Shown here: positions 6,544 through 47,604 of the stretch, one piece after another
How the letters are laid out: every line of letters begins with the position of its first letter
How positions within the stretch are numbered: the stretch's first letter is position 1
Source of the DNA: Parapedobacter tibetensis
GTDB lineage: Bacteria > Bacteroidota > Bacteroidia > Sphingobacteriales > Sphingobacteriaceae
Reading direction: 5' to 3'
Length of the DNA: 64,000 bases
Assembly (NCBI RefSeq): GCF_024704835.1
Contig: NZ_JAMXBE010000004.1
Coordinates: 1-64,000, forward strand
The notes under the pieces: model-generated
Told to the model about the DNA's origin: nothing
The model's database searches: none
What the model saw: only the letters and a program-made list of their open reading frames with translations
Position numbers and translations under genes: made by a program

Positions 6544-6554
6544 CACTAAAAACA

Positions 6555-7967
6555 ATGATGGAAATGAAACGTATCAAATCAATATTTACAGTTGTTGCAA
6601 TGGCGGGCGTTGCCTGCGCCTGCCAGGGTTTTCTTGATGTGAAACCCGATAAGAGTCTCACGGTACCATCGGGTCTGGACGATCTGCTATCATTGCTGGA
6701 CAACCAGGGGGTGTATTTGACGGTGTCCAATGCCGGTGAAATCAGCTCGGACGACTTCCACGTGACCGATGAAGATCTGGCTTCGCTATCATCCGATTGG
6801 CACAGGAGGATTTACGCCTGGGAGAGCGATTTTCTTTTCGAAAATCGGTCCAGGGATTGGAACGTCATGTTTGCAACCCCTATTTATTATTGCAACTCCA
6901 TGCTGGAGCATCTCGAAAATATCGAGCGGAATACGCAAAACCAGGCACTGTTTGATAATATCAAAGGGTCGGCCAAGCTTATCAGGGCGAGGACGCTGTT
7001 CCATGCTTCGCTTATCTGGACACTGGCCTATGATGAACGCACCGCGGGTTCGACGTTGGGTCTTCCCCTGCGGAAAAGCACGGATTTCAATGAGCTGTCG
7101 GTAAGGGCCAGCCTCAAGGAAACGTATGACTTTATTCTCGCCGACTTACAGGAATCGGTAGCCTTGCTGCCCGAAACCCCGCTCCATGTTGTCCGGCCGT
7201 CAAAGCCGGCAGCTTATGGGCTGCTGGCCCGTATACATCTTTATATGGGGGATTATGAAAAGGCATTTTCCTATGCCGACTCCTGTTTGAGAATAAAGGA
7301 TACATTGATGGATTATAACGAATTGGACACGGATCTGGCCAACCCGATACCACAGTACAATCCGGAGGTCATCCTTGATTATGCCATGGTAGCCGAGCAA
7401 GTTCTAAGTATATCGAGGGCGCGGATCAAACCGGAGATCATCAATAGCTACGAAAGTGGGGATTTGAGGCAACGGATTTTTTTCACCCTCGGTCAAGATG
7501 GAATCATGGGGTTCCGGGGCAGTTATTCCGGTATGACGGTTACGCTTTTTGCAGGGATTGCCACCGACGAGATCTATTTGATACGTGCGGAATGCAGTGC
7601 TAGGATGGGGAATGTACAGGACGCTTTGGCAGATCTGAACCGATTGCTTTCGAAACGATATGAAAACCGGGAGGGCACATCACTTCATATGCCCATCACC
7701 TCGGGCCAATGGGAAGAAGTCCTGCAGGTGGTAATGGAGGAACGCCGTAAGGAACTGATCTTCCGCGGGCTACGGTGGTATGACCTGAAGCGGCTGAATA
7801 GGGATGGGGCAAACATTGAAATGGTCAGGCTGATCGACGGCCAACAGCGGACGTTTCCGCCGAGTGATCTGCGGTACTCCTTCGGTGTGGCTCCGCTGCT
7901 GCACCGGAAAACGAACGGAGAACAAGCGGAGAACAACCGGACAATAAGCGGAGAAATGGCTTCGTGA
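6555..7967 (+). CDS. RagB/SusD-family lipoprotein
   Basis: About 470 residues. The start at 6555 gives a lipoprotein signal (MKRIKSIFTVVAMAGVACAC, a lipobox-like end) followed by GFLDVKPDKSLTVPS. Family marks are the TPR-like helices, AKLIRARTLFHASLIWTLAY, DEIYLIRAECSARMGN, and VMEERRKELIFRGLRWYDLK near the C-terminus. It is the substrate-binding surface partner of the SusC just upstream. The C-terminus is odd. After FPPSDLRYSF, where these proteins usually read a PIP-type strand, the sequence becomes VAPLLHRKTNGEQ and is encoded by repeated GCGGAGAA motifs. A late frameshift is likely. A longer upstream start at 6438 would overlap SusC and is not needed. Confidence 0.88.
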   Translation: MMEMKRIKSIFTVVAMAGVACACQGFLDVKPDKSLTVPSGLDDLLSLLDNQGVYLTVSNAGEISSDDFHVTDEDLASLSSDWHRRIYAWESDFLFENRSRDWNVMFATPIYYCNSMLEHLENIERNTQNQALFDNIKGSAKLIRARTLFHASLIWTLAYDERTAGSTLGLPLRKSTDFNELSVRASLKETYDFILADLQESVALLPETPLHVVRPSKPAAYGLLARIHLYMGDYEKAFSYADSCLRIKDTLMDYNELDTDLANPIPQYNPEVILDYAMVAEQVLSISRARIKPEIINSYESGDLRQRIFFTLGQDGIMGFRGSYSGMTVTLFAGIATDEIYLIRAECSARMGNVQDALADLNRLLSKRYENREGTSLHMPITSGQWEEVLQVVMEERRKELIFRGLRWYDLKRLNRDGANIEMVRLIDGQQRTFPPSDLRYSFGVAPLLHRKTNGEQAENNRTISGEMAS

Positions 7968-8208
7968 GTGCTGCACGGGTACCCCGCAGGCACGGCATGG
8001 ATGCGTAGGCACAACGGAATTGCTCCGGATACTCCGCGGAGCGGGTTCGTTTTTCTTCGCCTTCCTACGCTCTTCTACTAATTCCTTCACTTAATCTTTC
8101 GGCGTAGGTGGGCTGCCTTATGTTTGCCCTTGTGATACAGCAAACCACCGGTGGAATGAACGTATCCATGTTAGTTAACAGATTAGTGAATTTTAATTTT
8201 TTAATGTT

Positions 8209-8856
8209 ATGGCAACTTACAAACAGGGCGTAAATGGCGCCTTCTCCGGCAAAGCCGGCAGTGTAGTGGGCAGCAACTGGCGCAGCATCGGATATCTGCG
8301 CGGATTGTCCCGCTTCAAAAACAAATCAAATTCACCCAAACAGGCGGCGCAACGCATGCGTTTCGGCATGGCGGTGAGCTTTTTGCAACCCATGAAATCG
8401 CTGTTGCGCATCGGCTTCAACGACCGCGCCCGGGGCCGCAACACGGGTTTCAACCAGGGCCTTCGACGCTTCGTCAACCAAGCCGTGGTGGGCGAATATC
8501 CAGACCTGCAGATCGATTATTCGCAGGTGTCTCTGAGTCGTGGCGCACTTGAGAAGCTCATCGGGTTGTCGGCAGTGTCGGATACCCCGAACATGGTGGC
8601 GATACATTGGGCAAACTTACATGACCCGGCGTCTGAATCCGCTTTTGCGGATGACCAGCTCATCGTGGTGTTGTACAACCGCACGGAAGATATCTTCACC
8701 TCTAACCGGAGTGCCGTGCGGCAGGATGAAACCCTTCAACTGGAACTTCCGTCGGCATTTGTCGGCCATGAGTTCCACATATGGGTATTCGCCCGGCACC
8801 GTGAGGGTGTCGAGGTTTCCACCAGTCAATATGCAGGCACGGTAGTGCTCGCCTAG
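8209..8856 (+). CDS. DUF6266-family protein
   Basis: A 215-residue protein beginning MATYKQGVNGAFSGKAGSVV followed by GSNWRSIGYLRG. This is the hallmark N-terminus of DUF6266, a Bacteroidota-restricted family of unknown function that often appears in several copies near phage-like genes. There is no signal peptide or membrane segment. The N-terminal half is basic and glycine-rich; the C-terminal half looks like a beta-sandwich (LIVVLYN, FHIWVFARH). It is followed by a strong terminator, so it can be expressed alone. It is the first gene of the compact set with a holin-like membrane protein and a CHAP amidase, hinting at a phage-derived structural role (inference). Confidence 0.8.
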   Translation: MATYKQGVNGAFSGKAGSVVGSNWRSIGYLRGLSRFKNKSNSPKQAAQRMRFGMAVSFLQPMKSLLRIGFNDRARGRNTGFNQGLRRFVNQAVVGEYPDLQIDYSQVSLSRGALEKLIGLSAVSDTPNMVAIHWANLHDPASESAFADDQLIVVLYNRTEDIFTSNRSAVRQDETLQLELPSAFVGHEFHIWVFARHREGVEVSTSQYAGTVVLA

Positions 8857-34952: not shown

Positions 34953-35474
34953 ATGATGGTAAACTTCGACGCTGAAATAGTAAAAGATCATCGAAAAGGG
35001 GCCACACAGGGGTGGTCATATGTGGAAGTGCCCCAAGCGATCGCCCACCAGCTAAAACCCGGTTACAAGCAGGTTTACCGGGTGCGGGGGAAAATCGATG
35101 GTCAGCTATTTTCGGGCATGGCGCTGACACCCGCGGGTGATGGAGACTATAGCTTGCCCATCAATGGGAGGATGCGGAAATTGTTGAAGAAAGGGGAGGG
35201 GGATATGTTGTCCCTCAGTTTGGAAGAAGACAAAGACTTCACGATTGAAATGCCCGAAGACTTGGAAATATGCCTATTGGATGACGAAGCCGACTTGATG
35301 GGGCGCTTCATGGCATTAGCCAAATCGCATCGTAACTATTTCATCAATTACATCAACGGGGCCAAAACGGAGCCTACGCGAACAAAACGCATCGTGATGA
35401 CCATAGAAGCCATGGCATTAGAACTCGATTTTGGCGCCATGATAAGACTGGATAAATCAAGGAGGATGGTATGA
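34953..35474 (+). CDS. DUF1905 / YdeI-OmpD-associated protein
   Basis: 173 residues. The N-terminal ~95 form a DUF1905 beta-barrel (YVEVPQAIAHQLKPGYKQVY and PINGRMRKLLKKGEGD). The C-terminal part is a YdeI/OmpD-associated helical segment (KSHRNYFINYINGAKTEPTR). It is cytosolic with no known reaction. Its stop overlaps the start of the peroxiredoxin gene in an ATGA, so the two are translationally coupled. Confidence 0.82.
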   Translation: MMVNFDAEIVKDHRKGATQGWSYVEVPQAIAHQLKPGYKQVYRVRGKIDGQLFSGMALTPAGDGDYSLPINGRMRKLLKKGEGDMLSLSLEEDKDFTIEMPEDLEICLLDDEADLMGRFMALAKSHRNYFINYINGAKTEPTRTKRIVMTIEAMALELDFGAMIRLDKSRRMV

Positions 35475-36022
35475 ATAACGTGACAGGACGTATGGTACTG
35501 GCGATGGCCGTGCTCATAAGTGGTGCAATGGCTTGCGCACAAGAATCAGAAAACAAAACAAGGGATAACATGAACACATTGGAAATCGGTGATGAAGTAC
35601 CCCATTTTGTCTTAAAAGACCAAGATGGAAATGAATTCGATATCAAGGATTACATCGGCAAGAAAAAACTGGTCATTTACTTTTATCCGAAAGATGAAAG
35701 CCCAGGATGTACCAAACAAGCCTGTGCATTCAGGGATGATTTTGAGGCGTATACCGATGCCGGAGCGATGGTCATTGGCATCAATTCCGGTGACGTAAAA
35801 AGTCATCAGTCTTTTGCCCAAAACCATCGGATACCGTTTACGCTGCTCAGCGATCCGGGAAATAAGGTATTGAAGGCTTTCGGGGTAAAAAATGTGTTGT
35901 TTTTCACCGGTCGGGAGACATTTGTTGTCGGGATTGACGGGCGGGTAGCCTTCAAATACCGCGCGATGATGAACGCCACCGAACACAACAACCACGTGTT
36001 GGATTTTCTGGAAAGCAAGTGA
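35471..36022 (+). CDS. bcp: PrxQ/BCP-type peroxiredoxin, exported
   Basis: 183 residues. A thiol peroxidase with peroxidatic Cys in DESPGCTKQACAF and a resolving Cys five residues on, the atypical 2-Cys PrxQ pattern. Other marks are KKLVIYFYPKDESPGC and VIGINSGDVKSHQSFAQNH. An N-terminal hydrophobic signal ends ISGAMACAQES, lipobox-like, so it is probably a periplasmic or lipid-anchored form rather than cytosolic. An internal ATG (MNTLEIGDEVPHF) could give a cytosolic version. It is coupled by ATGA to the DUF1905 gene. Confidence 0.9.
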   Translation: MNNVTGRMVLAMAVLISGAMACAQESENKTRDNMNTLEIGDEVPHFVLKDQDGNEFDIKDYIGKKKLVIYFYPKDESPGCTKQACAFRDDFEAYTDAGAMVIGINSGDVKSHQSFAQNHRIPFTLLSDPGNKVLKAFGVKNVLFFTGRETFVVGIDGRVAFKYRAMMNATEHNNHVLDFLESK

Positions 36023-36198: not shown

Positions 36199-37266
36199 GT
36201 GTCAAAAATCAGTTTTAACAACAGCGGTTCAGCGTTTTCCAGTACATTGCGGCAGCGTGTCAACGGATATTTTAAGGCAAATAACATTTCCAATACAGGG
36301 AACAGGAGGCTATATATCAAAAGTGCCTTGCTGGCAGGGCTTGCCATTGCCAATTATGTATGCTTGGTTTTCTTTACACCGCCGGTGTGGATTGCTGTGA
36401 TGCTGTGTATCTTATTAGGGATCAACCTGGCCACTGTAGGTTTCAATGTGATGCATGAGGGTGGCCACCAAAGTTTTTCCCGACACTCATGGCTCAATAA
36501 GGTATCGGCCTATTCGTTGAATATGATGGGTGGTACCATCTATTTTTGGAAGCAAAAACACAACATCAGCCATCATACGTTTACCAACGTGGATGGTCTT
36601 GACCATGATATTGATGTCAAATTCATGCGGATGCATGCGGACCAACCCCGGAAATGGTTTCACCGTTTCCAATTTACCTATTGGTTTGTACTATATGGCA
36701 TTTCGTATATTGCGTGGGTGCTTTATCAAGATTTCGAGAAGTATTTCTCCGGAAGGATGGGCGTCAAGGCCGACCGGAAACCGATGCCTATAAGGGAGCA
36801 TTTTATCTTTTGGTTAACCAAGTTGAGCTATATTGGAATTTATATCGCTGTCCCCGTAATGATGCTGGGCTGGTTACCGGCCTTAATCGGTTGGCTGATT
36901 GTAGGTACAGCTTGTGGCTTTTGCCTCGCTGTGGTTTTCCAATTAGCGCATGTGGTAGAGTCTACCAATTTTCCGAAACCAGATGCTGACACGCATAAAA
37001 TCGAGCAGGAGTGGATGGTACATCAACTGAGTACCACCGCTAATTTTGCAACAAAAAGCAAAACGATTTCATGGTTACTTGGCGGACTCAATTTTCAAGT
37101 AGAGCATCACCTTTTCCCCCGGATAAGCCACGTGCACTATCCGGCCATCAACAAGCTCGTGAAAGAGACCTGTGCAGAATTCGATGTCGTCTATTTAGAG
37201 CACCGCAGTATGGTGCAAGCATTGGCATCCCATTTAAGGTTAATATACAGCTTGAGCAGGTCATAA
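36199..37266 (+). CDS. membrane fatty acid desaturase
   Basis: 355 residues with a GTG start (no in-frame ATG gives a full N-terminus). It is a di-iron acyl desaturase with three histidine boxes: HEGGHQSF, HNISHHTF, and QVEHHLFP near the C-terminus. Two pairs of membrane helices fall at ~50-85 and ~200-245. The QxxHH third box is of the front-end/acyl-lipid type but no cytochrome b5 domain is fused. It likely adjusts membrane fluidity. The cold-shock gene follows by 104 bp, but with its own promoter. Confidence 0.9.
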   Translation: MSKISFNNSGSAFSSTLRQRVNGYFKANNISNTGNRRLYIKSALLAGLAIANYVCLVFFTPPVWIAVMLCILLGINLATVGFNVMHEGGHQSFSRHSWLNKVSAYSLNMMGGTIYFWKQKHNISHHTFTNVDGLDHDIDVKFMRMHADQPRKWFHRFQFTYWFVLYGISYIAWVLYQDFEKYFSGRMGVKADRKPMPIREHFIFWLTKLSYIGIYIAVPVMMLGWLPALIGWLIVGTACGFCLAVVFQLAHVVESTNFPKPDADTHKIEQEWMVHQLSTTANFATKSKTISWLLGGLNFQVEHHLFPRISHVHYPAINKLVKETCAEFDVVYLEHRSMVQALASHLRLIYSLSRS

Positions 37267-37310
37267 TCCGGTAGTCGATTTAGCAAAAATGATTAATTTA
37301 AAAAAATTAA

Positions 37311-37340
37311 TTGATATTCAGGAATATATGCATACCTTTA
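37311..37340 (+). promoter_or_regulatory. cold-shock gene promoter
   Basis: TTG at 37311-37313, a 19-nt spacer and TACCTTTA at 37333-37340 give a near-ideal Bacteroidota promoter. It would start transcription about 24 nt before the ATG at 37371. Confidence 0.6.
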
Positions 37341-37370
37341 CACTTTATTCATATTTAATAATTTAATACA

Positions 37371-37562
37371 ATGCCAGAAGGAGTAGTAAAGTTTTTCAAT
37401 GAAACCAAGGGTTTCGGATTCATCACCCCCAATGAAGGTGGACGTGAGATTTTTGTTCATTCATCAGGGTTGAAAGACCGTATCCGTGAAAATGACGACG
37501 TTTCATACGACGTGGAACAAGGTCAAAAAGGATTAAACGCAGTAAATGTTAAGGTAATTTAA
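37371..37562 (+). CDS. cold-shock domain protein
   Basis: A 63-residue single OB-fold CSD protein: [20 protein letters not shown] carries RNP1 (KGFGFI) and IFVHSSGLK carries RNP2. It binds single-stranded RNA/DNA and acts as an RNA chaperone in the cytosol. It is monocistronic, with a clear promoter at 37311-37340 and a strong terminator at 37584. A DEAD-box helicase gene is convergent downstream; both types act on RNA structure in the cold. Confidence 0.95.
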
Positions 37563-37583
37563 GACCTATTCAGATATTGTCAG

Positions 37584-37620
37584 AAGGCTGCCCTAAATTA
37601 GGGCAGCCTTTTTATTTTAA
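37584..37620 (+). terminator. rho-independent terminator of the cold-shock gene
   Basis: AAGGCTGCCCTAA (37584-37596) is perfectly complementary to TTAGGGCAGCCTT (37598-37610). The T-rich tract TTTATTTT follows. Confidence 0.9.
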
Positions 37621-37652
37621 TAAGAATTTTGGATCCTTTACAACAACTATCG

Positions 37653-38942
37653 TCAGACGGCGATTCGCCTATTCCACTTATTGTTCTTCTTATGATTGTT
37701 GTTTTTGTTGGGAGTTGATGACTTCTGGGTCTTTGCCGGTGGCCGTTCATATGACTCCAAGTCTCCCACAATAAAGGGATGTTTTGTTACCAATGGAAGT
37801 TGCTGCCCGATGAGCTTATTGATTTGCCAGAGGTATTCGCGCTCTTCCGAGTCACAGAATGACCACGCTTCTCCACTTGATCCAGCCCTTCCGGTCCGTC
37901 CGATACGGTGTACGTAGGTTTCGGGTTCGTTGGGAAGGTCGTAATTGATAACCAACGGTAAATCTTCCACATCAATACCTCTTGCGGCTATATCTGTCGC
38001 GATGAGTACACTCACCTTTCCTGATTTGAACCCGTTAAGTGCCTTCTGCCTGGCTTGCTGCGATTTGTTGCCGTGGATGGCTTCCGCAGCGATATTAGCT
38101 TGCTTTAGCTTTCTCACCACTTTATCGGCGCCATGTTTTGTTCTGCTAAAGACCAATACATGGTTTGCTCCTCCATGGAGAATCAGGTGTGTGAGCAACT
38201 TGATCTTGTCGATTTTGGCAACTGGATAGATGGATTGCACAACTTTTTCGGCCGTGGAAGATGCTGGAGTTACCTCTACTTTTGCAGGATTGTCCAATAA
38301 GGTATCAGCAAGTGAGGCAATCTCTTTGGGCATGGTGGCCGAAAACAACAAGGTCTGGCGTTTCTCGGGTATGAGTTTAAGGACTTTCTTGATATCGTTT
38401 ATAAAACCCATGTCAAGCATCCGATCAGCCTCGTCCAGCACAAAAAACTCGATGTGCCTGAGTGAAACGATGCCTTGTTGTACCATATCTAACAACCTGC
38501 CGGGTGTAGCGACCAGTATATGGGGGTGCTTCCGGATGTCATTGGCTTGTTGGTGCGTAGAAACGCCTCCGAAAATGACGGAGTGGCGGATTTTCGTATT
38601 GCTGGAATAGTTTCCGATGTTTTCGCCGATCTGTATGGCCAGCTCCCTAGTGGGAGATAAGATAAGCGCGCGGATATTGGTCCTGTTATCCCTATGCGTG
38701 TTGTCTGACTCATGCAACAGCTGAATGATGGGGAGCGCGAATGCTGCGGTTTTACCGGTACCGGTTTGCGCACATCCTAATATATCGCGGTGTTTTAAAA
38801 TTAATGGAATGGCCTGTTCTTGAATAGGTGTTGGGGTGTTATATCCCGAAGCTTTCAGTACCCGTAATAGTGGTTCAGAAAGCATTAAATTTGAAAATGA
38901 CAATCTATTTAAATTTAAGGATGCAGAATAAATTAACGACAT
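37653..38942 (-). CDS. DEAD-box RNA helicase
   Basis: 429 residues. An ATP-dependent RNA unwinding enzyme with the ordered motifs: upstream Phe plus Q motif (TPTPIQEQAIP), motif I AQTGTGKT, Ia SPTRELA, Ib TPGRL, II VLDEADRMLDMGF, III FSATMP, V ATDIAARGID and VI HRIGRTGRAG. The tail (~380-429) is short, basic and Asn/Lys-rich, as in RhlE-like cold-adaptation helicases. The chosen start keeps the Phe upstream of the Q motif. It is convergent with the cold-shock gene. Confidence 0.95.
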   Translation of the reverse strand: MSLIYSASLNLNRLSFSNLMLSEPLLRVLKASGYNTPTPIQEQAIPLILKHRDILGCAQTGTGKTAAFALPIIQLLHESDNTHRDNRTNIRALILSPTRELAIQIGENIGNYSSNTKIRHSVIFGGVSTHQQANDIRKHPHILVATPGRLLDMVQQGIVSLRHIEFFVLDEADRMLDMGFINDIKKVLKLIPEKRQTLLFSATMPKEIASLADTLLDNPAKVEVTPASSTAEKVVQSIYPVAKIDKIKLLTHLILHGGANHVLVFSRTKHGADKVVRKLKQANIAAEAIHGNKSQQARQKALNGFKSGKVSVLIATDIAARGIDVEDLPLVINYDLPNEPETYVHRIGRTGRAGSSGEAWSFCDSEEREYLWQINKLIGQQLPLVTKHPFIVGDLESYERPPAKTQKSSTPNKNNNHKKNNKWNRRIAV

Positions 38943-39124: not shown

Positions 39125-39733
39125 TTAATGATCACCATGACCATCACCTTCCACTATATGCAGATCAAATTTCAAATTGAGGTCATTGGCACCGCCAAAC
39201 TGTGTGTAATTGGGATTGTTCCAATCGGCTGCTGTGATGTTGCTTTTTACGCCTACATTAAGGTGCCGCAGTACGTAATTGAATGTAAAACCCGTTTCAG
39301 TGGCCTCCAGTACATGCAGGTATCCGGTTACTCCAACCTGTGCGTCAACATAAGTATAATCTAATACGCCGTCAGGGGCGCCTAATAGGAAGGCCTGGTG
39401 GATATCAGCATCGTCGACAAACTCATCCTGTACTTCATTACCGTCACTATCGTAGGCTGTCAATATCAATCGATAGGTTTTGCCTTCATCGAGATCGACA
39501 TGTCCATTCCCCACGGGCGACATTTGTCGATCAAATTCAATCTCCACCGTTTCAGGATTATCAACGTCATGAGGGTGACTGCCGTGCCATTCCACTTCCA
39601 CGAACGTCAATTTGGCTTTCGCTACTTCTTCCTGGGGTGGTTCAGGGGTGGGATCATCTTTACTGCACGAGGCAAATGTGATTATCCCAATTGCCAAGAA
39701 CATCCATGCTACCTGTTTTACTAATTTTTCCAT
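39125..39733 (-). CDS. His-rich lipoprotein, putative metal binding
   Basis: 202 residues with a lipoprotein signal (MFLAIGIITFASC then SKDD) and a Pro/Glu linker. The beta-sandwich domain has histidines in VEWHGSHPHDVDN and ADIHQAFLL, and an end rich in His/Asp/Gly (LHIVEGDGHGDH). It lies 55 bp downstream of the ZnuD-like TonB receptor on the same strand, so both are probably one transcript. A surface or periplasmic zinc-capture role fits the histidines and the context, but is inference. No named family was recognised. Confidence 0.75.
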   Translation of the reverse strand: MEKLVKQVAWMFLAIGIITFASCSKDDPTPEPPQEEVAKAKLTFVEVEWHGSHPHDVDNPETVEIEFDRQMSPVGNGHVDLDEGKTYRLILTAYDSDGNEVQDEFVDDADIHQAFLLGAPDGVLDYTYVDAQVGVTGYLHVLEATETGFTFNYVLRHLNVGVKSNITAADWNNPNYTQFGGANDLNLKFDLHIVEGDGHGDH

Positions 39734-39788: not shown

Positions 39789-42131
39789 TTAAAATGAATA
39801 AGCGAGCTTTATGCTCATGTTCCGCCCGATATCATGGCTGAAATACCTGAATCGATTCATATACTCTTTGTATTGCTTGTTGAATAGATTCGTCGCCGAT
39901 AGGGTGATGTCCAATGTCCGGTCGCCCCATGATAGCTGGGTGCCGGCGTATACCGCATACAATTGGTATGCAGGTGGCGGGGCGGCATAATCCGATTCCG
40001 GTTCATACCGCGTCTGGCGAAGCACGATGCGTTGCTCCAATTTTGCATACGTATGTTGCAAACTATTGGACATAAGCGGTATTTCCCAACGCAGGTGGTG
40101 GTCTGCCCGGTCTGCCGGGATATAGGGCAAATAGCTGCTGTGTTCGGTGTCTTTGGCCCGGATAATGGAGGCGTTGAGGTGATAGGAAAGCCCTACGGGC
40201 ATACGGTATTGGCCGGCAAAATCAATGCCCCAGAAGCTGGCATTAGTCTGCACATACCGGAATATGGGAAATGTACCCCGTATACTTTGTAGGAACTCAC
40301 CTGCCGAGGGCTGTGCATAGATATAGTGATGGATGTATTGGGCATACACATCCAGATCAAACGAAAACCGTTCGCCGGAATAGGAGGGACTCACCATCCA
40401 TTTGTAGCTTTGCTCGCTCTCCATGTCTGGATCGCCGATTTCATAGAGAGCGGCCCCTTGGTGCAGGCCACTGCTATAGAGTTCATTGGCATTGGGTGCA
40501 CGCCATGCCAAGCCGATGTTGCTACGCAATTGCCAGTCCGGGTGTAGATGTAAAACGCCTCCAACGGTACCGCTGAGGTTGTGAAATTGCCGGTAGCCGC
40601 CATAGTATTCCAATTGGCTATCATAACCAGCAGCATCAAACGTCCTGAAATCATAACGTAGCCCCGCTTCCCATTCATGGGTGTCTTTTACCAACCGTTG
40701 AATAGCGAATAAACCGGCGGTGAAGCTGTCGTAATTAGGTATTATTGGCGTATTTAGCGTGCCGGGAACATTGTTGTTGACTTGGAGCATGAGGTTGCTG
40801 CCCACCTGGGTTGTCCATCCCGCATAAGATGGCGTATGGTAGCTCGCATCGAGCGTTTGGGTGGTCAATACCATGTCAAGCATCGGCAAAGCATCGCGAT
40901 CGCCACGGCGGATGTCATACTCTTGCCTGTGGTTGCGTTGGAGGCCGTATTGGATATCCAAGGATGCACCACTTGCCAGGTCTTGGTGCCATTTGATTTT
41001 ACCCAAATCGTGTACCGCACGCTGGCGAGGGGGTTGGATCTGGTAAGAGAATCCGTAATTTTCCAATGGCCTGCCAGCGTCAACCCTGGCCTGAATATCA
41101 TCGATATCGCCGATATGGGCACTGGTCAATATGCCCAAGGAGGTGTAGAAACGGCTATAATATGCGTCCAGCGAAGTGGTCGCCCGAGAGTACTGTAAGG
41201 CGGCTGAAAAGTTATATTCGCCCACTCCGGTATTACCTAAGTAATAATCCGCGGCCCGTATATTACCACCGCGTTTTGCTGTGCCCTGTACGCGCCAACT
41301 CAGTCCCTTGATGCGGTTGATCCCCGATTGCAACATGCCAGACAATACACCTATCTGTCCATTGGTGCTATACAAGGTATGGATTTCGCCCGAGAGGTGC
41401 GGGTCGACAGGCAGTGGAGGCGATGATACCAGGATAACTCCCCCAATGGCATCTGCACCATACCGTACACCTTCTGCGCCTTTGATCAGTTTGAAATCCT
41501 TGGCCATGAAAGGGTCGATTTCCGGTGCATGCTCGCTTCCCCATTGCTGACCCTCTTGGCGTACGCCATTATTGAGGATGAGGATACGATTGCCATACAT
41601 TCCATTGATGACAGGCTTGGCAATCGTACTGCCGGTTTGCAACATGCTAACCCCCGGTAATGCATCGAATATTCCGGCCAATGTTCCTCCACGCGCTTCG
41701 GCTATCGCCTCTCGGGATACGGCCTTGGATGGATTGGTGGTCACAACAGACTGTTGATGGCCAACGACATCAACATCATGCAGCTTAATGTGGCCATGGC
41801 TAAGCGTGATGTTCAATGTTTCATTTCCAGCAAGTGTAAGCGTTGTAGTTATGCTATCAAAACCGATGCTGCTAGCCATTACCGTATAGGACGTACCCTC
41901 ACAAAGCTGTGAAAACTGAAAATAACCATGGCCATCTGAAATCGTTTGGTGGATGCCGGGGCTAACTTTGATCGTTACCCCAGATAATGGTAGTTGGGTA
42001 TCGTTATCGATAACTCTTCCCCGAAGCGTCAATGTACATGATTCATCTTGGGCGAATGCCAAGGAAACATATACGAAGAGTATGATTAAAAGTATCCCTT
42101 TTTGTATTCGCATGTTAGTTATAATCCTCAC
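39789..42131 (-). CDS. TonB-dependent receptor, ZnuD-like
   Basis: 780 residues with signal peptide (LLIILFVYVSLAFA then Q). A carboxypeptidase-like domain (~30-115; LRGRVIDNDTQLPLSGVTIK) precedes the plug, which reads AKPVINGMYGNRILILNNGV followed by RQEGQQWGSEHAPEIDPF. That block closely follows the pattern of the zinc receptor ZnuD. A 22-strand barrel follows, ending YFSHDIGRNMSIKLAYSF. It would import zinc or another metal complex across the outer membrane with TonB energy. It is co-directional with the His-rich lipoprotein gene. ATG at 42131 or 42113. Two palindromes overlap its promoter, suggesting metal-responsive repression. Confidence 0.88.
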   Translation of the reverse strand: MRIITNMRIQKGILLIILFVYVSLAFAQDESCTLTLRGRVIDNDTQLPLSGVTIKVSPGIHQTISDGHGYFQFSQLCEGTSYTVMASSIGFDSITTTLTLAGNETLNITLSHGHIKLHDVDVVGHQQSVVTTNPSKAVSREAIAEARGGTLAGIFDALPGVSMLQTGSTIAKPVINGMYGNRILILNNGVRQEGQQWGSEHAPEIDPFMAKDFKLIKGAEGVRYGADAIGGVILVSSPPLPVDPHLSGEIHTLYSTNGQIGVLSGMLQSGINRIKGLSWRVQGTAKRGGNIRAADYYLGNTGVGEYNFSAALQYSRATTSLDAYYSRFYTSLGILTSAHIGDIDDIQARVDAGRPLENYGFSYQIQPPRQRAVHDLGKIKWHQDLASGASLDIQYGLQRNHRQEYDIRRGDRDALPMLDMVLTTQTLDASYHTPSYAGWTTQVGSNLMLQVNNNVPGTLNTPIIPNYDSFTAGLFAIQRLVKDTHEWEAGLRYDFRTFDAAGYDSQLEYYGGYRQFHNLSGTVGGVLHLHPDWQLRSNIGLAWRAPNANELYSSGLHQGAALYEIGDPDMESEQSYKWMVSPSYSGERFSFDLDVYAQYIHHYIYAQPSAGEFLQSIRGTFPIFRYVQTNASFWGIDFAGQYRMPVGLSYHLNASIIRAKDTEHSSYLPYIPADRADHHLRWEIPLMSNSLQHTYAKLEQRIVLRQTRYEPESDYAAPPPAYQLYAVYAGTQLSWGDRTLDITLSATNLFNKQYKEYMNRFRYFSHDIGRNMSIKLAYSF

Positions 42132-42162: not shown

Positions 42163-42190
42163 CAAAAATACAACAATGTTGTGTTATAAC
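42163..42190 (-). promoter_or_regulatory. promoter with overlapping palindromes, possible Zur/Fur-type operator
   Basis: On the minus strand TATTTTTG (42170-42163) matches the -7 consensus about 32 nt before the ATG at 42131. Immediately upstream are ACAACAATGTTGT (42170-42182, a perfect 6-1-6 palindrome) and GTTATAAC (42183-42190, a perfect palindrome resembling half of known Zur boxes). A repressor bound there would block transcription. Confidence 0.45.
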
Positions 42191-42194
42191 GTAA

Positions 42195-42218
42195 ATTAAA
42201 TGCAACAAAATTTCATTT
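42195..42218 (+). repeat. 24-nt direct repeat, copy 1
   Basis: ATTAAA, then T, then GCAACAAAATTTCATTT. It is identical to 46608-46631 except for one base (T versus C). The two copies bound a 4.4-kb AT-richer segment. Confidence 0.7.
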
Positions 42219-42550
42219 ATATTGGCGTTGTTGGTAGTTAGTTCATGGCTAATACCTAATAACTGTTAGCTTATTATGACCTCGGATGGAATTGCAAAAA
42301 TACCGAGCGATGATTGAATGCTGACGAACATAATAGCCAGGTTTTGATTAGTTAATTTTTGCTACTAGTCGTGGCGGGGCTTTCCGTGCTCAGGCCGCAC
42401 GAGCTCGTTAGTTATTCGCTTTCATACTTGCTTTTGATGGTGCTCATGCTTTCCCCGCCGGTTGGAGGTTCAGGTTGTCTTGTCAAAGTGACCAAACCGC
42501 TCGGCTGTGGATGCTCCATCCAGTTTTCGATGTGACCTTTGATTAACTTC
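42219..42550. other. 332-bp region without a clear gene
   Basis: It holds a GC-rich imperfect hairpin near 42369-42401, with TCGTGGCGG facing CCGCACGA, and the palindrome CGAGCTCG just after it. A leftward 66-codon frame (42412-42612, ending MSTIKSKYESE) overlaps the end of the next gene. It may be a decayed gene but cannot be supported as coding. Confidence 0.4.
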
Positions 42551-45313
42551 TTACAAACCGAATCTCCTAAATTGATATGCCAAGGAAAACATATAGAATC
42601 GACCAAGTACATTGTTATGCCTCAGGGAAGACAATTCGGTGTTTACGTTGTATGAATATTGATTGTTGTTATCGAACAGATCATATATGCTGAAGGATAA
42701 TAGGCCTTTACCATCTTTAAGAAACGATTTGGTCAATGATATGTTCCAAGTCAGTACATCCTGAGAGCCGAAATCGGAAGACTTGTTACCGTAGTAGCTC
42801 AAGTTTGAACTTATATCAAAAAGTGTTATACCCTTTAACCTCATGGTATTGGTGATAACCTGTTTAATGACATTTAGATTTTTTGAGGCGAGCGAGTTGT
42901 CAATGTGTTGATAGCCTAATTGGTAAGAAAAGCTGCATTGATATGTTAAGCTAAAGAAATTCATTATCAGCTGGCTTGATACTGAATTGGATTTCAGTCT
43001 ATTGGGTTGTTCATTAACGTAATACTTGTTGCGCATAGAACTAAAATTCAGATTAAAGTTGGTGTTTACCCGGTTATTGAATAATGATTTGGTATAGGAC
43101 GTGTTGGCGTTCAAGAACATGTATCCATTTACGTTTACTGGCTGTGAAATCCTTGCTCCTCTTTGGAGCGATACCTCATTAATTATTGTATCCCTTTCAA
43201 GGTATGATATCCTATCTGTTATCTTGTTCTCATTGATATTTAAGTTGATGATGGTGTTTAATGCGCTTTGACTTTTTGCTAGGATATAATTGTTGGATAT
43301 TTGGACCTGGTGGTTTACTTCGTTTTTTAAATGGGAATTTCCCAGAGCTATCCTTTGCGGGTCTTGAATACTGGTTGCCTCTTGGAGCTGAAACAGACTT
43401 GGTGGTACCACACTTTTCGTGTAGTTTAACGACAGGCTATTATTGGGCCGGGGTGCAAACGAGATATTTAAAAATGGAAGGTAATTGCTGGTTGTAAATC
43501 TTTCTTTCGCGTCAGGGTTTAATCCGTCAGTATTTGCCTGTAAATATCTTTGGTAGTACATGCCAACAACGCTTCTCATCTTGGGTTTTGAATACGCCAG
43601 TCTGAATCCAAATGAACTATTGCTGTTCTGCGTCCTATAGTTGTGGGCAAGGAGGACATTGTCCCCTGTCCCTAAGTTTTCCCCGTCGGCTTCCATCGCA
43701 TTGAAGATGCTATTCTTGAATTCATTGGTATTCCGATTAGTGGAGATAGACATTACTGTTTGTAATGAAATATCTTGATTCAGTGGTTCATTGTATTGCA
43801 CGTTCATGGTATACTGGCGAGAAAAGTCGCTGCTAGTAGTCTCATAGTTGTTGCTATTTAATATCCCATTATCTGAGCTTTGGCTTTCGGTGGACAGGCT
43901 GTTGTTACGGCTGTTGTTGAAGTTGTTTAGGGCAGTGAAGGTGAGCGAAAGGCTACGTCCTGCTGAATCGATCTTGTAACTATACATCCCATTTATGACC
44001 GGGCTTGAAACGGAATAGTTGCCGTTGTTGCTGAGAAGCAGATTTCTTACATGATTGTCTTGTCCAATTATGCTCTGTGATGTCACGTCCTGCATCTTGT
44101 TGGTATTTAACTCAAAACCAGGGATAACCATCAAGGAATGCTTATTGCTTCGGTATTCAAGCTTGCTTGTAAGTTTGAAACCTTTCAGATTATCCTTGCC
44201 ATCGACGCTTCGTCTTAATTCCCTTATACCTGATTCCTCCACACTGATTAAATCATCCGAATTCGACCTATTGTAAATCGCATTGTTGTTAACTTCAAGT
44301 CTTAACAGAAATTTGAGGTCCCTGTCCCTTTCATTGGAGTAATTAAGATCAAGGTTGGCGAAATAAGGTTTTTTTGCAGCATCCGCAATCGTACCAACCT
44401 CGTTACTGCCCATGCTACCCCAGCCCCTACTTATGTTATTCAGCGAAATATTGGAGGCGTATCTGTCCTTCTCCCTGAATGCGTTGGCTTCCACGTCAAG
44501 CTCCTTCAATTCCTCGGTCCCGAGTTGGCTACGCGCCTGTCCAAAATAACCTGTTCGTTTGTCCGGTTTGGTTACGATATCGATCTGTTTATAACGAAGG
44601 CCATCATCGAAGCCGGCGAAATCTGATTCCGGGCTTCTGGCATTGACGATTTTCACTTTGTCTATTGCTTCCGCCGGAATTATTTTCATGAGCTTCAAGG
44701 GATCGGTTAAAAAGAAATCACTGCCATCAACAGTGATCTTGGTTATTTCCGTTCCTTGCGCGATCAATTCCCCTTCGTGGTTTAAGTAAACACCCGGTAT
44801 CTGGAAAAGGATGATATCCGCATCATCGTATTTACCGTATTTAAACTCTGACACATCGTAGATAACTGTGTCGCCACGGCGCTCCATAGAAGCCCTAGGG
44901 AGAGTAACGGAAACAGAGTCAAGCACATGGTTTTCCATACTCAGAAGGACTTCAAGGTAAACTCTGATTCCGGATTTAGCGGGTTCGTTTATGGGGAAAG
45001 TCCGCGGTCTATAGCCGATATGCGTAAATGATATGGCGGTGAAGCTGTCAACATCAACGCTGAATTCAAACCTGCCGTTCTTAATTGTTCGTGCTGCCAA
45101 GTATTTGGTACTATCTCCATCGTTGAACAGCGAAATATTTATGTTATCCAAAGGCAATAATGATGTTGAATCCAATACATGTCCATAATAAATTCTCTCC
45201 CGCTTTGTTTGCGCACTACTGGGAAAGGAACATATCAATGCCAGGGCAAGCGCGGAAATCGCTGTGGACGGAAAGCGGGGGACATAATGTGTTATCCTAA
45301 GCACAGTTATCAA
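42551..45313 (-). CDS. outer-membrane beta-barrel protein, TonB-receptor-like
   Basis: 920 residues. Signal (ALALALICSFPSSA then Q), a carboxypeptidase-like domain (~40-120; GHVLDSTSLLPLDNINISLF), and a plug-like region with ASMERRGDTVIYDVSEFKYG, QIPGVYLNHEGELIAQGTEI and TVDGSDFFLTDPLKLMKIIP. A long Asn/Ser-rich barrel follows, ending FYMFSLAYQFRRFGL. It fits the OMP_b-brl family of Bacteroidota barrels rather than true SusC. The codons are visibly AT-richer than in the neighbouring genes. It forms an islet with the secreted protein at 45403. Transport versus secretion role is unknown. Confidence 0.82.
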   Translation of the reverse strand: MITVLRITHYVPRFPSTAISALALALICSFPSSAQTKRERIYYGHVLDSTSLLPLDNINISLFNDGDSTKYLAARTIKNGRFEFSVDVDSFTAISFTHIGYRPRTFPINEPAKSGIRVYLEVLLSMENHVLDSVSVTLPRASMERRGDTVIYDVSEFKYGKYDDADIILFQIPGVYLNHEGELIAQGTEITKITVDGSDFFLTDPLKLMKIIPAEAIDKVKIVNARSPESDFAGFDDGLRYKQIDIVTKPDKRTGYFGQARSQLGTEELKELDVEANAFREKDRYASNISLNNISRGWGSMGSNEVGTIADAAKKPYFANLDLNYSNERDRDLKFLLRLEVNNNAIYNRSNSDDLISVEESGIRELRRSVDGKDNLKGFKLTSKLEYRSNKHSLMVIPGFELNTNKMQDVTSQSIIGQDNHVRNLLLSNNGNYSVSSPVINGMYSYKIDSAGRSLSLTFTALNNFNNSRNNSLSTESQSSDNGILNSNNYETTSSDFSRQYTMNVQYNEPLNQDISLQTVMSISTNRNTNEFKNSIFNAMEADGENLGTGDNVLLAHNYRTQNSNSSFGFRLAYSKPKMRSVVGMYYQRYLQANTDGLNPDAKERFTTSNYLPFLNISFAPRPNNSLSLNYTKSVVPPSLFQLQEATSIQDPQRIALGNSHLKNEVNHQVQISNNYILAKSQSALNTIINLNINENKITDRISYLERDTIINEVSLQRGARISQPVNVNGYMFLNANTSYTKSLFNNRVNTNFNLNFSSMRNKYYVNEQPNRLKSNSVSSQLIMNFFSLTYQCSFSYQLGYQHIDNSLASKNLNVIKQVITNTMRLKGITLFDISSNLSYYGNKSSDFGSQDVLTWNISLTKSFLKDGKGLLSFSIYDLFDNNNQYSYNVNTELSSLRHNNVLGRFYMFSLAYQFRRFGL

Positions 45314-45319
45314 CTATTT

Positions 45320-45365
45320 AAAAAAAGGGAAATTACCAAGATCACAATAGATTTTGGTAATTCCC
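45320..45365 (-). terminator. rho-independent terminator, leftward
   Basis: GGGAAATTACCAA (45327-45339) pairs with TTGGTAATTCCC (45354-45365) with a one-base bulge. On the minus strand the stem is followed by a run of seven T. It ends the transcript of the secreted-protein gene at 45403 and separates it from the barrel gene. Confidence 0.8.
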
Positions 45366-45402
45366 TGGTCACCCCCCTTAAACAAATTTGAAAATTAATT
45401 AA

Positions 45403-45981
45403 TTAAAATGCCGATTTCAATACAGATTCAGAGATATAACCGGAATATTCCCTGACATTATATGTTTCAAGAATCCAATAAAGGCCTAACCAGTCCTTTT
45501 TCCTTCTCTGGGAAATCGTATATATTGTATGAAGCCTCGATGAAAAATGTACATACTCATTATCTTCCGAGTTGGATGGCAACCAAATGAACTGGGTGCG
45601 ATTGTTGGGAGTGTTGTTATTATTAAACACTTTATACGCCACTGGTATACCATCGTCGCTGGGAACCCCTATCGTAGTGTAGGCATATGGCCCCGGGTTT
45701 ATACTGTACCCCCATGCCACGTAGGAAGGGCCAACAACGTTGATATCCTTCTTCTGACCTTGGGGGCCATTATTTGTGTCAAAGAAGAAATCAAATTCCA
45801 AAAGCGCATAGTACTTGTTATCTGCTCCCCTCTGTACCTTTTTGATTCCCTTATAGACAACTTGGTCACCGGGTAATGGATTGTAATAAGGTATATCGCT
45901 CCAAGGGATTTGCGCACTTGCTGAATTGCTTATAAATAGAACCGATGCAAATAAAATAAAAAACTGTTTTAACTTTTTCAT
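45403..45981 (-). CDS. hypothetical secreted protein, 192 aa
   Basis: A clear Sec signal peptide (MKKLKQFFILFASVLFISNS then ASAQ) precedes an aromatic-rich, beta-looking domain: IPYYNPLPGDQVVYKGIKKV, YYALLEFDFFFDTN, SYVAWGYSINPGPYAYTTIG. No lipobox and no family I recognise. The base composition is AT-rich like the barrel gene downstream. A terminator at 45320 separates them, so it has its own transcript. It lies in the repeat-bounded islet beside xerD. Confidence 0.72.
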   Translation of the reverse strand: MKKLKQFFILFASVLFISNSASAQIPWSDIPYYNPLPGDQVVYKGIKKVQRGADNKYYALLEFDFFFDTNNGPQGQKKDINVVGPSYVAWGYSINPGPYAYTTIGVPSDDGIPVAYKVFNNNNTPNNRTQFIWLPSNSEDNEYVHFSSRLHTIYTISQRRKKDWLGLYWILETYNVREYSGYISESVLKSAF

Positions 45982-46100
45982 AAGATTAAATTTTTAATTG
46001 AATAAGGGGCGATAAATACAACTAAGTTGCGAAACAATGTTAGGCAAAAGATTTTAGCTTCGCAAGTTATTTTTATTTAAACTTAATGTTTCACTCCGTA

Positions 46101-46597
46101 GCAGAGCTGCGAGGTGTCCCGTGGCGTCAAAACAAACGTAGTTGACCTTTGTACCACGGCTTATTTATTCTTTTCCCCTTTTCCTTGATTGGAAACATAT
46201 CTCTTTATTATTTATTTCTTCATTCGCATATTGAGCAACTGTGTTGATATAATAGCCATCCGTCCAAAATTGGCCACCCGATAATTGCTGTTCTATCTCC
46301 TGATGCATCCTGAACAACTCTTACGCTGTTATACTTTTTATCCGCTGGACTATAACCTTGGGAGATAACATCGGAACACCCTATCTCAATAAAATAAATC
46401 CTCATATTGCCGCTATTTCTCCACATATCAAACCTATACTATGAGAGACTCCCGAACTTAATACCGAACGCCTGTACTTTATAGTAACTACAATGTGAGA
46501 CAGCAGCAAACTCTTGTTGTGTCGCCTGTGGATATGATCGCCCCATGTAGCAAAGATAATCTGCTTGCCACTTTTGCCCCGCAGCAGAGCTGCGAGG
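46101..46597. mobile_element. decayed IS200/IS605-like element flanked by short direct repeats
   Basis: The 14-nt sequence GCAGAGCTGCGAGG occurs at 46101-46114 and again at 46584-46597 in the same orientation. Each copy contains the self-complementary GCAGAGCTGC-type hairpin. Between them lies the broken tnpA fragment. The two small leftward frames here (46220-46426 and 46439-46621) are not intact genes. Confidence 0.5.
46161..46405 (-). pseudogene. IS200/IS605 TnpA transposase fragment
   Basis: Reading the minus strand across frames gives SPKVIVQRIKSITA, a stop, then ELFRMHQEIEQQLSGGQF, WTDGYYINTVAQYANEE, and, after a frameshift, RYVSNQGKGEKNK with stop TAA at 46161-46163. This is the C-terminal half of the small Y1 (HUH) transposase of IS200/IS605 elements, in which WTDGYYxNTV is diagnostic. 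At least one in-frame stop and one or two frameshifts show it is dead. The N-terminal half with the HUH motif was not found. Confidence 0.75.
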
Positions 46598-46607
46598 AAT
46601 TCTGCTG

Positions 46608-46631
46608 ATTAAACGCAACAAAATTTCATTT
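46608..46631 (+). repeat. 24-nt direct repeat, copy 2
   Basis: It matches 42195-42218 in 23 of 24 bases. It lies 41 bp beyond the stop of xerD. Confidence 0.7.
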
Positions 46632-46672
46632 CCGTAAGCATAAGCATGGGTACGACGTGCAACGCCGTTAGC

Positions 46673-47569
46673 TTACGATCGTGGGTGGTATTGGATAATG
46701 ACTGAACGCAGGTAGTCACGATCTATATGGGTATAAATTTCCGTGGTAGTGATGCTTTCATGGCCTAGCATTTCCTGCACGGCACGTAAATCGGCGCCGC
46801 CTTCTACCAAATGGCTAGCAAAGGAATGCCGGAAGGTGTGCGGGCTTATTTTCTTTTTTAATCCCATTTTTTTTGCCAGTTCCTTGATGATCAGGAATAC
46901 CATGACACGGGATAGGGGAGAACCTCGCCGGTTGAGAAACACAAAATCCTCATACCCCGGCTTAATTTTTTGGTGTACACGCACTTCTTCCAAGTATATG
47001 TGGAGGTATTTCGCTGCTTGTGTTCCGATGGGCACCAAGCGTTCCTTGCTTCCTTTACCTTCTACTTTTATAAATTCCACATCGAGAAAGAGGTTGGAAA
47101 TCTTGAGTCCGACCAATTCACTGACCCGGAGGCCACAGCCGTATAATATTTCGAGTATGGCCTTGTTGCGCATACCTTCAGGCGCTGAAAGATCAATGGC
47201 CGCTATGAGGCCATCGATTTCGGTGATATTAAGTACGTCGGGGATTTTCCGCCCTAAACGGGGAGCTTGGATAAGCGCCGTTGGGTTTTCCAGCAGTCCA
47301 TGTTCAATACTAAGGAAAAGATAAAATGTTTTGACGCCTGAAAGGATGCGTGCTTGGCTATATGCTGATATTCCGAAGCTATTGATCCAGGTAAGGAAAG
47401 CCTGGATATGCTTAGGCGTGATTTCCATGGGTCGGATATGGTCCGGTTCTGCATACCGCTGCAATTTGCTCACATCATTCAGGTAAGCATCCACGGTATT
47501 GGTAGACATGGCTCGCTCCAATTGAAGGTATTGTTTGAACGCCGTGATTGTCGCTTCCCAGTCCATCAT
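46673..47569 (-). CDS. xerD: site-specific tyrosine recombinase XerD
   Basis: About 298 residues from ATG 47569 (MMDWEATITAFKQYLQLERA); an earlier in-frame ATG at 47593 lies too close to the -7 element. N-terminal SAM-like core-binding domain, then a catalytic domain with R in GCGLRVSELVGL, K in VEGKGSKERLVP, HxxR in HTFRHSFASHL, H in LGHESI and the nucleophile Y in TTEIYTH. It resolves chromosome dimers at dif with XerC, at the division septum. The length is the standard one. It might also act on the direct repeats just downstream (inference). Confidence 0.93.
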   Translation of the reverse strand: MMDWEATITAFKQYLQLERAMSTNTVDAYLNDVSKLQRYAEPDHIRPMEITPKHIQAFLTWINSFGISAYSQARILSGVKTFYLFLSIEHGLLENPTALIQAPRLGRKIPDVLNITEIDGLIAAIDLSAPEGMRNKAILEILYGCGLRVSELVGLKISNLFLDVEFIKVEGKGSKERLVPIGTQAAKYLHIYLEEVRVHQKIKPGYEDFVFLNRRGSPLSRVMVFLIIKELAKKMGLKKKISPHTFRHSFASHLVEGGADLRAVQEMLGHESITTTEIYTHIDRDYLRSVIIQYHPRS

Positions 47570-47604
47570 TACATCGGGGTGTTTGATATACATATATATA
47601 TCGA

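What the first reader, a model, noticed from the sequence alone, without database searches (positions are those of the whole stretch)
42195..46631. 4.4-kb AT-richer islet bounded by a 24-nt direct repeat next to xerD
Repeats at 42195-42218 and 46608-46631 are 23/24 identical. Between them lie a large outer-membrane barrel, a secreted protein, transposase debris and GC-rich hairpins, with visibly lower GC than both flanks. The right copy is 41 bp from the xerD stop. This is the layout expected of an inserted element with attachment-site duplication, possibly one using the host Xer recombinase, as some integrating elements do.
Basis: partly seen in the sequence, partly recalled or inferred. Interest (0 to 1): 0.6.

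Follow-up and report, generated by a model that had tools for sequence, protein, structure and literature searches.

The report
Duplicated promoter around an added operon
The 24-letter repeat beside xerD is half of a nutrient-receptor gene's promoter that was duplicated when an extra pair of outer-membrane genes was added next to it in one bacterium, so it is best read as an ordinary species-specific DNA insertion and not as a Xer-driven mobile element.

Summary
In detail: 23/24-nt direct repeats at 42195-42218 and 46608-46631, GC 0.409 inside against 0.474 and 0.451 outside, a Y1 (IS200-like) transposase relic, right copy 41 nt from the xerD stop. The islet is a lineage-specific addition: in 6 of 8 other species of the genus xerD is followed directly (77-468 nt) by the same TonB receptor. 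The attachment-site reading fails. The 24-mer is the upstream part of that receptor's conserved promoter/operator; it occurs once before TonB in those six and is missing near xerD in the two species lacking TonB there. The duplication also exceeds 24 nt: the promoter's second part recurs before the islet's first gene (46014-46040), cut off by the transposase relic; the post-xerD spacer recurs; and a decayed 3' end of bcp (convergent with this operon in three relatives) lies between islet genes and second promoter. The locus reads as two tandem units of promoter-operon-bcp 3' end, one with secreted protein + barrel, the other with TonB + lipoprotein. Most likely it arose by homologous/illegitimate recombination (additive uptake of a relative's segment, or tandem duplication plus replacement). 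No integrase domain in the two islet genes, no dif-like site at the repeats. Ordinary.

The parts
46673..47593 (-). xerD, ordinary chromosomal recombinase gene, right neighbour of the islet
   Evidence: TIGR02225 XerD equivalog 337.4 bits, cut-off 329.6; orthologues 79-85% in 8 of 8 congeners
46608..46672 (-). promoter copy A, upstream part (24-mer 46608-46631) and the post-xerD spacer (46632-46672)
   Evidence: 23/24 to left copy; spacer with stop codon aligns with the stretch 42219-42275, 15 of 2000 shuffles reach the score
46089..46597 (-). decayed IS200/IS605-like element: Y1 transposase relic between two direct copies of a 26-nt hairpin end (46089-46114, 46572-46597); its right hairpin ends 10 nt from the 24-mer, its true tips are not fixed
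   Evidence: PF01797 E 1.9e-14 with X at stops; direct repeat D1; folding
46014..46040 (-). probable promoter copy A, downstream part (inner dyad and -7 region) in front of the secreted-protein gene
   Evidence: 27 nt, 74% to 42166-42192; GCAACNNNGTTGTATTT within 2 mismatches at only 2 places in 64 kb; 0 of 300 shuffled islets hold it exactly; whole-promoter alignment only marginal
45403..45981 (-). 192-aa secreted protein
   Evidence: ORF; no Pfam or NCBIfam hit; weak homologues in 3 of 300 other family genomes; one of them lies beside a related barrel
42551..45313 (-). 920-aa outer-membrane beta-barrel with N-terminal carboxypeptidase-regulatory-like domain
   Evidence: PF14905 E 1.2e-16; PF13620 E 1.4e-4, below its cut-off; best relative 28% identity; none at E<=1e-85 in 398 other family genomes, two candidates scored in each listed genome
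42279..42350 (+). relic of the 3' end of a bcp-type peroxiredoxin gene (intact copy at 35471-36022 +); ends approximate
   Evidence: top 4 of 2624 window tiles and top 10 of 5676 congener tiles are bcp 3' ends, same relative orientation; blastn 38/49 to 35954-36001; 0 of 500 shuffles for 4 of 5 bcp sequences, 72 of 500 for G002
42219..42278 (-). second copy of the post-xerD spacer and the junction to the bcp relic
42166..42218 (-). promoter copy B, intact: 24-mer 42195-42218, 12-nt spacing, inner dyad 42166-42182
   Evidence: same two motifs (or close variants) and 12-nt spacing upstream of TonB in 6 of 6 congeners that have TonB beside xerD
39789..42131 (-). TonB-dependent receptor (heme/zinc-receptor-like) behind copy B; beside xerD in 6 of 8 congeners
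   Evidence: PF00593, PF07715; TonB-hemin and ZnuD models hit below their cut-offs
39125..39733 (-). lipoprotein-like gene with His-rich end, conserved after TonB
   Evidence: 56-62% in 6 of 8 congeners

Best explanation
The islet is one of two tandem units, each made of promoter/operator - outer-membrane operon - 3' end of the convergent bcp gene, in the xerD-bcp interval of a Parapedobacter species. The resident unit is promoter B - TonB receptor - lipoprotein (bcp intact further on). The added unit is promoter A - secreted protein - barrel - bcp relic. The 24-nt repeat is the upstream part of the promoter present in each unit. An IS200/IS605-like element later landed within about 10 nt of the 24-mer of promoter A and decayed, leaving that 24-mer stranded by xerD. 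The addition most likely came by homologous recombination at the xerD/promoter end plus an illegitimate join at the bcp end, using DNA from a relative whose xerD-bcp interval carries the secreted protein + barrel. Tandem duplication followed by replacement gives the same layout. Shown here: repeat, empty sites, conserved promoter motifs, second promoter part (probable), bcp relic, transposase relic. Inferred: foreign donor, one-step mechanism, order of events, co-regulation of both operons (perhaps by a zinc/Fur-type regulator).
For: xerD and TonB are 77-468 nt apart in G001 and G003-G007. The promoter motif pair has 12-nt spacing in 6 of 6, and no such motif lies near xerD in G002 and G008, which lack this TonB gene there. 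The first three of 17 direct-repeat families listed for the region are the IS ends, the 24-mer and the inner promoter motif. The inner motif ends 32 nt before the start codon of the islet's first gene. The bcp relic: top 4 of 2624 window tiles and top 10 of 5676 congener tiles are bcp 3' ends. bcp follows the TonB-lipoprotein operon convergently in G004, G006, G007 and follows xerD directly in G002. Spacer homology: 15 of 2000 shuffles. Y1_Tnp relic. The islet genes lack close relatives in the genus and family samples.
Against: No genome with secreted protein + barrel in the xerD-bcp interval was found, so the donor is hypothetical. bcp was found in the fetched xerD stretch of only 4 of 8 congeners (not in G001, G003, G005, G008), and the bcp of G002 matches the relic no better than shuffles (72 of 500). 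The inner motif before the islet gene is 74% over 27 nt, is part of an imperfect palindrome (46013-46079), and lacks an exact TAnnTTTG. A whole-promoter alignment to that region is only marginal (12 to 460 of 1000 shuffles, depending on the species). About 48 nt lie between the IS hairpin and the inner motif, so a clean restoration of promoter A is not shown. A competing reading of overlapping bases as a xerD 3' relic scored well at protein level.
Confidence: 0.65

Rival explanations
1. Integrating element: an element carrying an attachment site identical to the 24-mer integrated site-specifically downstream of xerD, by its own lost integrase or by host XerC/D.
For: Species-specific insertion and a single-copy empty site in 6 of 8 congeners; low GC; the repeat is found at two places only with the 131-nt query.
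Against: The duplicated layout extends beyond the 24-mer on both sides; the 24-mer is a conserved promoter part and is missing near xerD where TonB is missing; no integrase domain in the two islet genes and a Y1 transposase relic as the only recombination gene seen; no dif-like site at the repeats.
Confidence: 0.08
2. Resident tandem duplication of the segment from the xerD stop to bcp, followed by replacement of TonB-lipoprotein in the first unit by the secreted protein + barrel genes.
For: Explains both promoter copies, the second spacer and the bcp relic; the relic is slightly nearer to the resident bcp (score 54) than to those of congeners (47-53, and 31 for G002).
Against: Needs two events; the islet's four non-coding pieces searched against the window gave no match at E<=0.1 on the TonB or lipoprotein genes.
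Confidence: 0.22
3. Chance: two unrelated operons carry similar regulator sites and an IS landed nearby; there was no duplication.
For: Regulator sites do recur, and the 24-mer is a regulatory element; the inner-motif and spacer similarities are each modest.
Against: The 16-nt core with 0-1 mismatch occurs at only three places in the genome, two of them here, and the bcp relic and spacer copy sit where a duplicated unit predicts.
Confidence: 0.05

Closest known systems
Additive integration by homology-facilitated illegitimate recombination, or tandem segmental duplication, at a flexible chromosomal interval (from general knowledge, no call)
   Same: Extra operon flanked by directly repeated resident sequence; one homologous end, one broken gene end (bcp relic); empty site in relatives
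   Different: No donor identified; the long repeat is visible only as 24 nt because an IS relic lies beside one promoter copy and the rest has diverged
Integrase-driven genomic islands with duplicated att core
   Same: Direct repeats around a lineage-specific, AT-richer segment; single-copy empty site
   Different: Repeat is a promoter part, the duplicated layout is longer than the 24-mer, no integrase domain in the two islet genes
IS200/IS605 (Y1 transposase) elements; palindromic ends as described in passages of PMC8266576
   Same: Y1_Tnp relic with two hairpin-like ends in direct orientation, within the islet's right end
   Different: Decayed; it accounts only for about 46089-46607, not for the islet

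Membership tests
Integrative element with attachment-site duplication | Recombinase gene in the element | tested here: not met
   The two islet genes hit barrel domains or nothing; the only recombination relic seen is Y1_Tnp. Short overlapping ORFs in the islet were not scanned one by one.
Integrative element with attachment-site duplication | Single copy of the repeat at the empty site | tested here: met
   6 of 6 congeners with xerD-TonB adjacency have one copy, 1-5 mismatches to the left 24-mer and 2-6 to the right, but as the TonB promoter
Integrative element with attachment-site duplication | Duplicated sequence is limited to the recombination core | tested here: not met
   Inner promoter motif, spacer and bcp 3' end also belong to the duplicated layout
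Xer-using integrating element | dif-like site at the junctions | tested here: not met
   Best match to the recalled E. coli dif is 13 of 28 mismatches, rank 164 of 127,946; the Bacteroidota dif itself was not available
IS200/IS605 element (46089-46607) | Y1 HUH transposase | tested here: met
   PF01797 54.2 bits (cut-off 23), E 1.9e-14, with X at stops; the two pieces alone are below the cut-off (E 0.0034 and 0.00046)
IS200/IS605 element (46089-46607) | Palindromic ends | tested here: inconclusive
   Two direct 26-nt copies, 85% alike; one folds well (z -3.8), one weakly (z -0.87)
IS200/IS605 element (46089-46607) | Insertion without target duplication | not tested
   Left tip cannot be fixed; about 48 nt between hairpin and inner motif
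ZnuD zinc receptor (39789-42131) | Curated NCBIfam score | tested here: not met
   91.6 bits against a cut-off of 950: a relative at most

The most novel reading that the evidence does not exclude
The xerD-bcp interval of Parapedobacter is an exchange slot for outer-membrane operons in which the shared operator and the convergent bcp end act as the homology anchors, so an incoming operon is fitted behind a copy of the resident metal-responsive promoter and is co-regulated from the start.
Probability: 0.2. Interest if true: 0.4.

Novelty: new member of a known kind. Interest (0 to 1): 0.2.

Why it matters
It shows how a promoter duplicated with an added operon, with a later insertion sequence beside one copy, can look like an attachment-site-bounded mobile element. 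If both operons prove co-regulated, it is a clean example of a new surface operon acquired together with its regulator site.

Tried and rejected
xerD 3' relic in the left flank: 42277-42312 read on the minus strand gives RSVFLQFHPRS*, against RSVIIQYHPRS* in xerD. The score is 48, against a maximum of 27 in 60 shuffled islets (best elsewhere in the window 26) and 29 in 2000 local shuffles, with a Gumbel estimate of p about 1e-6. Synonymous changes exceed chance (p 0.0026). I first took it as a duplicated xerD end. I dropped it because the same bases, on the other strand, belong to a longer bcp 3' relic that wins at DNA level (bcp 0 of 500 shuffles for 4 of 5 sequences, 72 of 500 for G002; xerD 12 of 500) and ranks first over all tiles. 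The protein-level score of the xerD reading stays unexplained. A family-wide pattern search for its peptide VFLQFHP gave 16 of 399 genomes with a match; of the 10 loci read, one was the window itself and nine were frames without a xerD-like tail; six matches were not read.

A foreign TonB gene: TonB groups with G001 (99/98) while xerD and the riboflavin-synthase-like protein are more similar to other congeners. The XerD tree is unresolved, so I draw nothing from it.

Plasmid origin: no megablast match to the islet DNA and no tblastn match (E<=1e-5) to the 192-aa protein in 72,556 plasmid records. Phage records were not searched.

Zur box: the 24-mer resembles recalled gram-negative Zur boxes (AAATG-N11-CATTT). 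One paper search for a Bacteroidetes Zur site listed two papers, and passages of one of them (PMC6613475) gave no motif. Left as inference.

xerD-linked islands: one paper search, 10 of 33 papers listed, none opened.
Full report
What was checked. The window is contig 34 of a 5.98-Mb, 85-contig genome. The direct repeat is real and is the only such same-strand 24-nt pair in the window. Islet GC is 0.409, against 0.474 and 0.451 in equal flanks.

Empty site. In 6 of 8 other species of the genus (G001, G003, G004, G005, G006, G007) the TonB receptor gene follows xerD directly, with 113, 223, 126, 77, 140 and 468 nt between the protein matches (coordinates; sequences). G002 and G008 have no orthologue of this TonB receptor beside xerD. 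By the listed rows, adjacency also holds in G022, G023 and G024, 532-611 nt between the matches (in G023 the TonB match begins at residue 109, so its gap is overstated), and in 5 of 80 GTDB loci, 413-545 nt (in one of these the match begins at residue 115). None of these xerD-TonB intervals is long enough to hold the islet. The barrel has no relative at E<=1e-85 in 398 other family genomes (the best in 59 relatives is 28% identity), and the 192-aa protein has only weak matches in 3 of 300 others, none in the genus.

What the repeat is. Read towards TonB, all six congeners carry TTGCATTTAAT, then exactly 12 nt, then an inner dyad of the form GCAAC-N-GTTG or a variant of it (G001, G005) (6 of 6). 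The window's left copy has the same layout (42195-42218, 12 nt, 42166-42182). An exact Bacteroidota -7 element TAnnTTTG follows in the window, G003, G004 and G005, and is one base off in G001, G006 and G007 (read by eye; the consensus is as stated in passages of PMC6414381). The 24-mer is thus the upstream part of the TonB promoter/operator. Its 16-nt core with up to 2 mismatches occurs beside xerD in those six and in the window, but not in G002 (no match on the xerD contig) or G008 (nearest about 30 kb away). In the own genome 19 sites pass 2 mismatches against 9 for the reversed control, so the weak matches are largely chance; only three sites have 0-1 mismatch. An attachment site should persist without TonB; a promoter part should not.

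The right copy. Ten bases inside it ends a decayed IS200/IS605-like element: two direct 26-nt ends at 46089-46114 and 46572-46597 around a Y1 transposase relic. Beyond it, 32 nt before the start codon of the secreted-protein gene, is the inner promoter motif (46014-46030). It matches GCAACNNNGTTGTATTT exactly; within 2 mismatches the motif occurs at only two places in 64 kb, the other being the TonB promoter. So the second copy of the promoter is probably complete but split by the insertion. Against this, a whole-promoter alignment to that region is only marginal (12 to 460 of 1000 shuffles, depending on the species), the motif also sits in an imperfect palindrome, and about 48 nt separate it from the IS hairpin.

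The left side. Between the barrel and promoter B the bases 42279-42350 (+) are a relic of the 3' end of bcp, a peroxiredoxin gene (named by its sequence, from general knowledge) whose intact copy lies at 35471-36022 (+). The top 4 of 2624 tiles in the window and the top 10 of 5676 tiles in eight congener xerD regions are bcp 3' ends: window 54, G006 49, G007 47, G004 47. The next non-bcp scores are 44 in the window and 39 in the congeners. The peptides KYRAMI and LNADEHNSQVL match KYRAMM and MNATEHNNHVL across a frameshift (blastx E 0.24 and 0.005). In G004, G006 and G007 bcp is the convergent gene after TonB-lipoprotein, and in G002 it follows xerD directly; it was not found in the fetched stretches of G001, G003, G005 and G008. 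The G002 bcp itself does not match the relic above shuffles (72 of 500). The spacer after the xerD stop codon also recurs before promoter B (15 of 2000 shuffles). The layout therefore reads as two tandem units of promoter - operon - bcp 3' end. Part of the same stretch had looked like a xerD 3' relic on the other strand; that reading is set out and rejected in Tried and rejected.

How it likely arose and works. One-step additive recombination with a relative's segment (homologous at the xerD/promoter end, illegitimate inside bcp) explains the duplicated features in a single event; a resident tandem duplication with later replacement of one operon is the main rival. The present function is inferred: a secreted protein and an OMP_b-brl_3 barrel, probably driven by a copy of the promoter of the neighbouring receptor. 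A similar pairing is seen in G275, where a related barrel (24%, E 1e-13) lies between a related secreted protein (29%, E 2.7e-8) and another that looks related by eye. The receptor resembles heme/zinc receptors (NCBIfam TonB-hemin E 6.6e-41, ZnuD E 4.8e-26, both below curated cut-offs), so a Fur/Zur-type regulator is a guess.

Verdict. A real, species-specific insertion in a variable interval, with an ordinary explanation for its 24-nt repeats. It is not evidence of a Xer-using element.

Noticed in passing
36199-38942: A fatty-acid-desaturase-like gene (36199-37266 +, named by eye) and a DEAD-box-helicase-like gene (37653-38942 -) lie between the lipoprotein and bcp genes; in G004, G006 and G007 those two are only 102-107 nt apart, so this looks like a second addition in the same interval.
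   Followed up: partly
42410-42475: 66 nt are 82% identical to contig 10:67858-67923 of the same genome; both stretches read as the end of a short peptide with PEPP.GGES.STI in common (by eye), origin unknown.
   Followed up: partly
46013-46079: Imperfect palindrome (50 of 70 aligned positions) in front of the secreted-protein gene, overlapping the inner promoter motif.
   Followed up: no
L094, xerD-TonB gap of G007: Most of the 468-nt gap is simple tandem repeats such as TTGATAG and TCCATTA.
   Followed up: no
L098 (G008) 4709-8215: The xerD-side interval holds a different, oppositely oriented TonB-like receptor (24% identity) instead of the conserved one, and the sequence right after xerD is His-codon-rich on the opposite strand (by eye).
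   Followed up: partly
L101, L102, L103 between xerD and TonB: A small open frame with His-rich stretches (clearest in G023, by eye) precedes the TonB gene in these other genera; the short gaps of the six Parapedobacter congeners do not show it.
   Followed up: no
52005 (+): Best, still poor, match to the recalled E. coli dif in the window: 9 of 28 mismatches.
   Followed up: no
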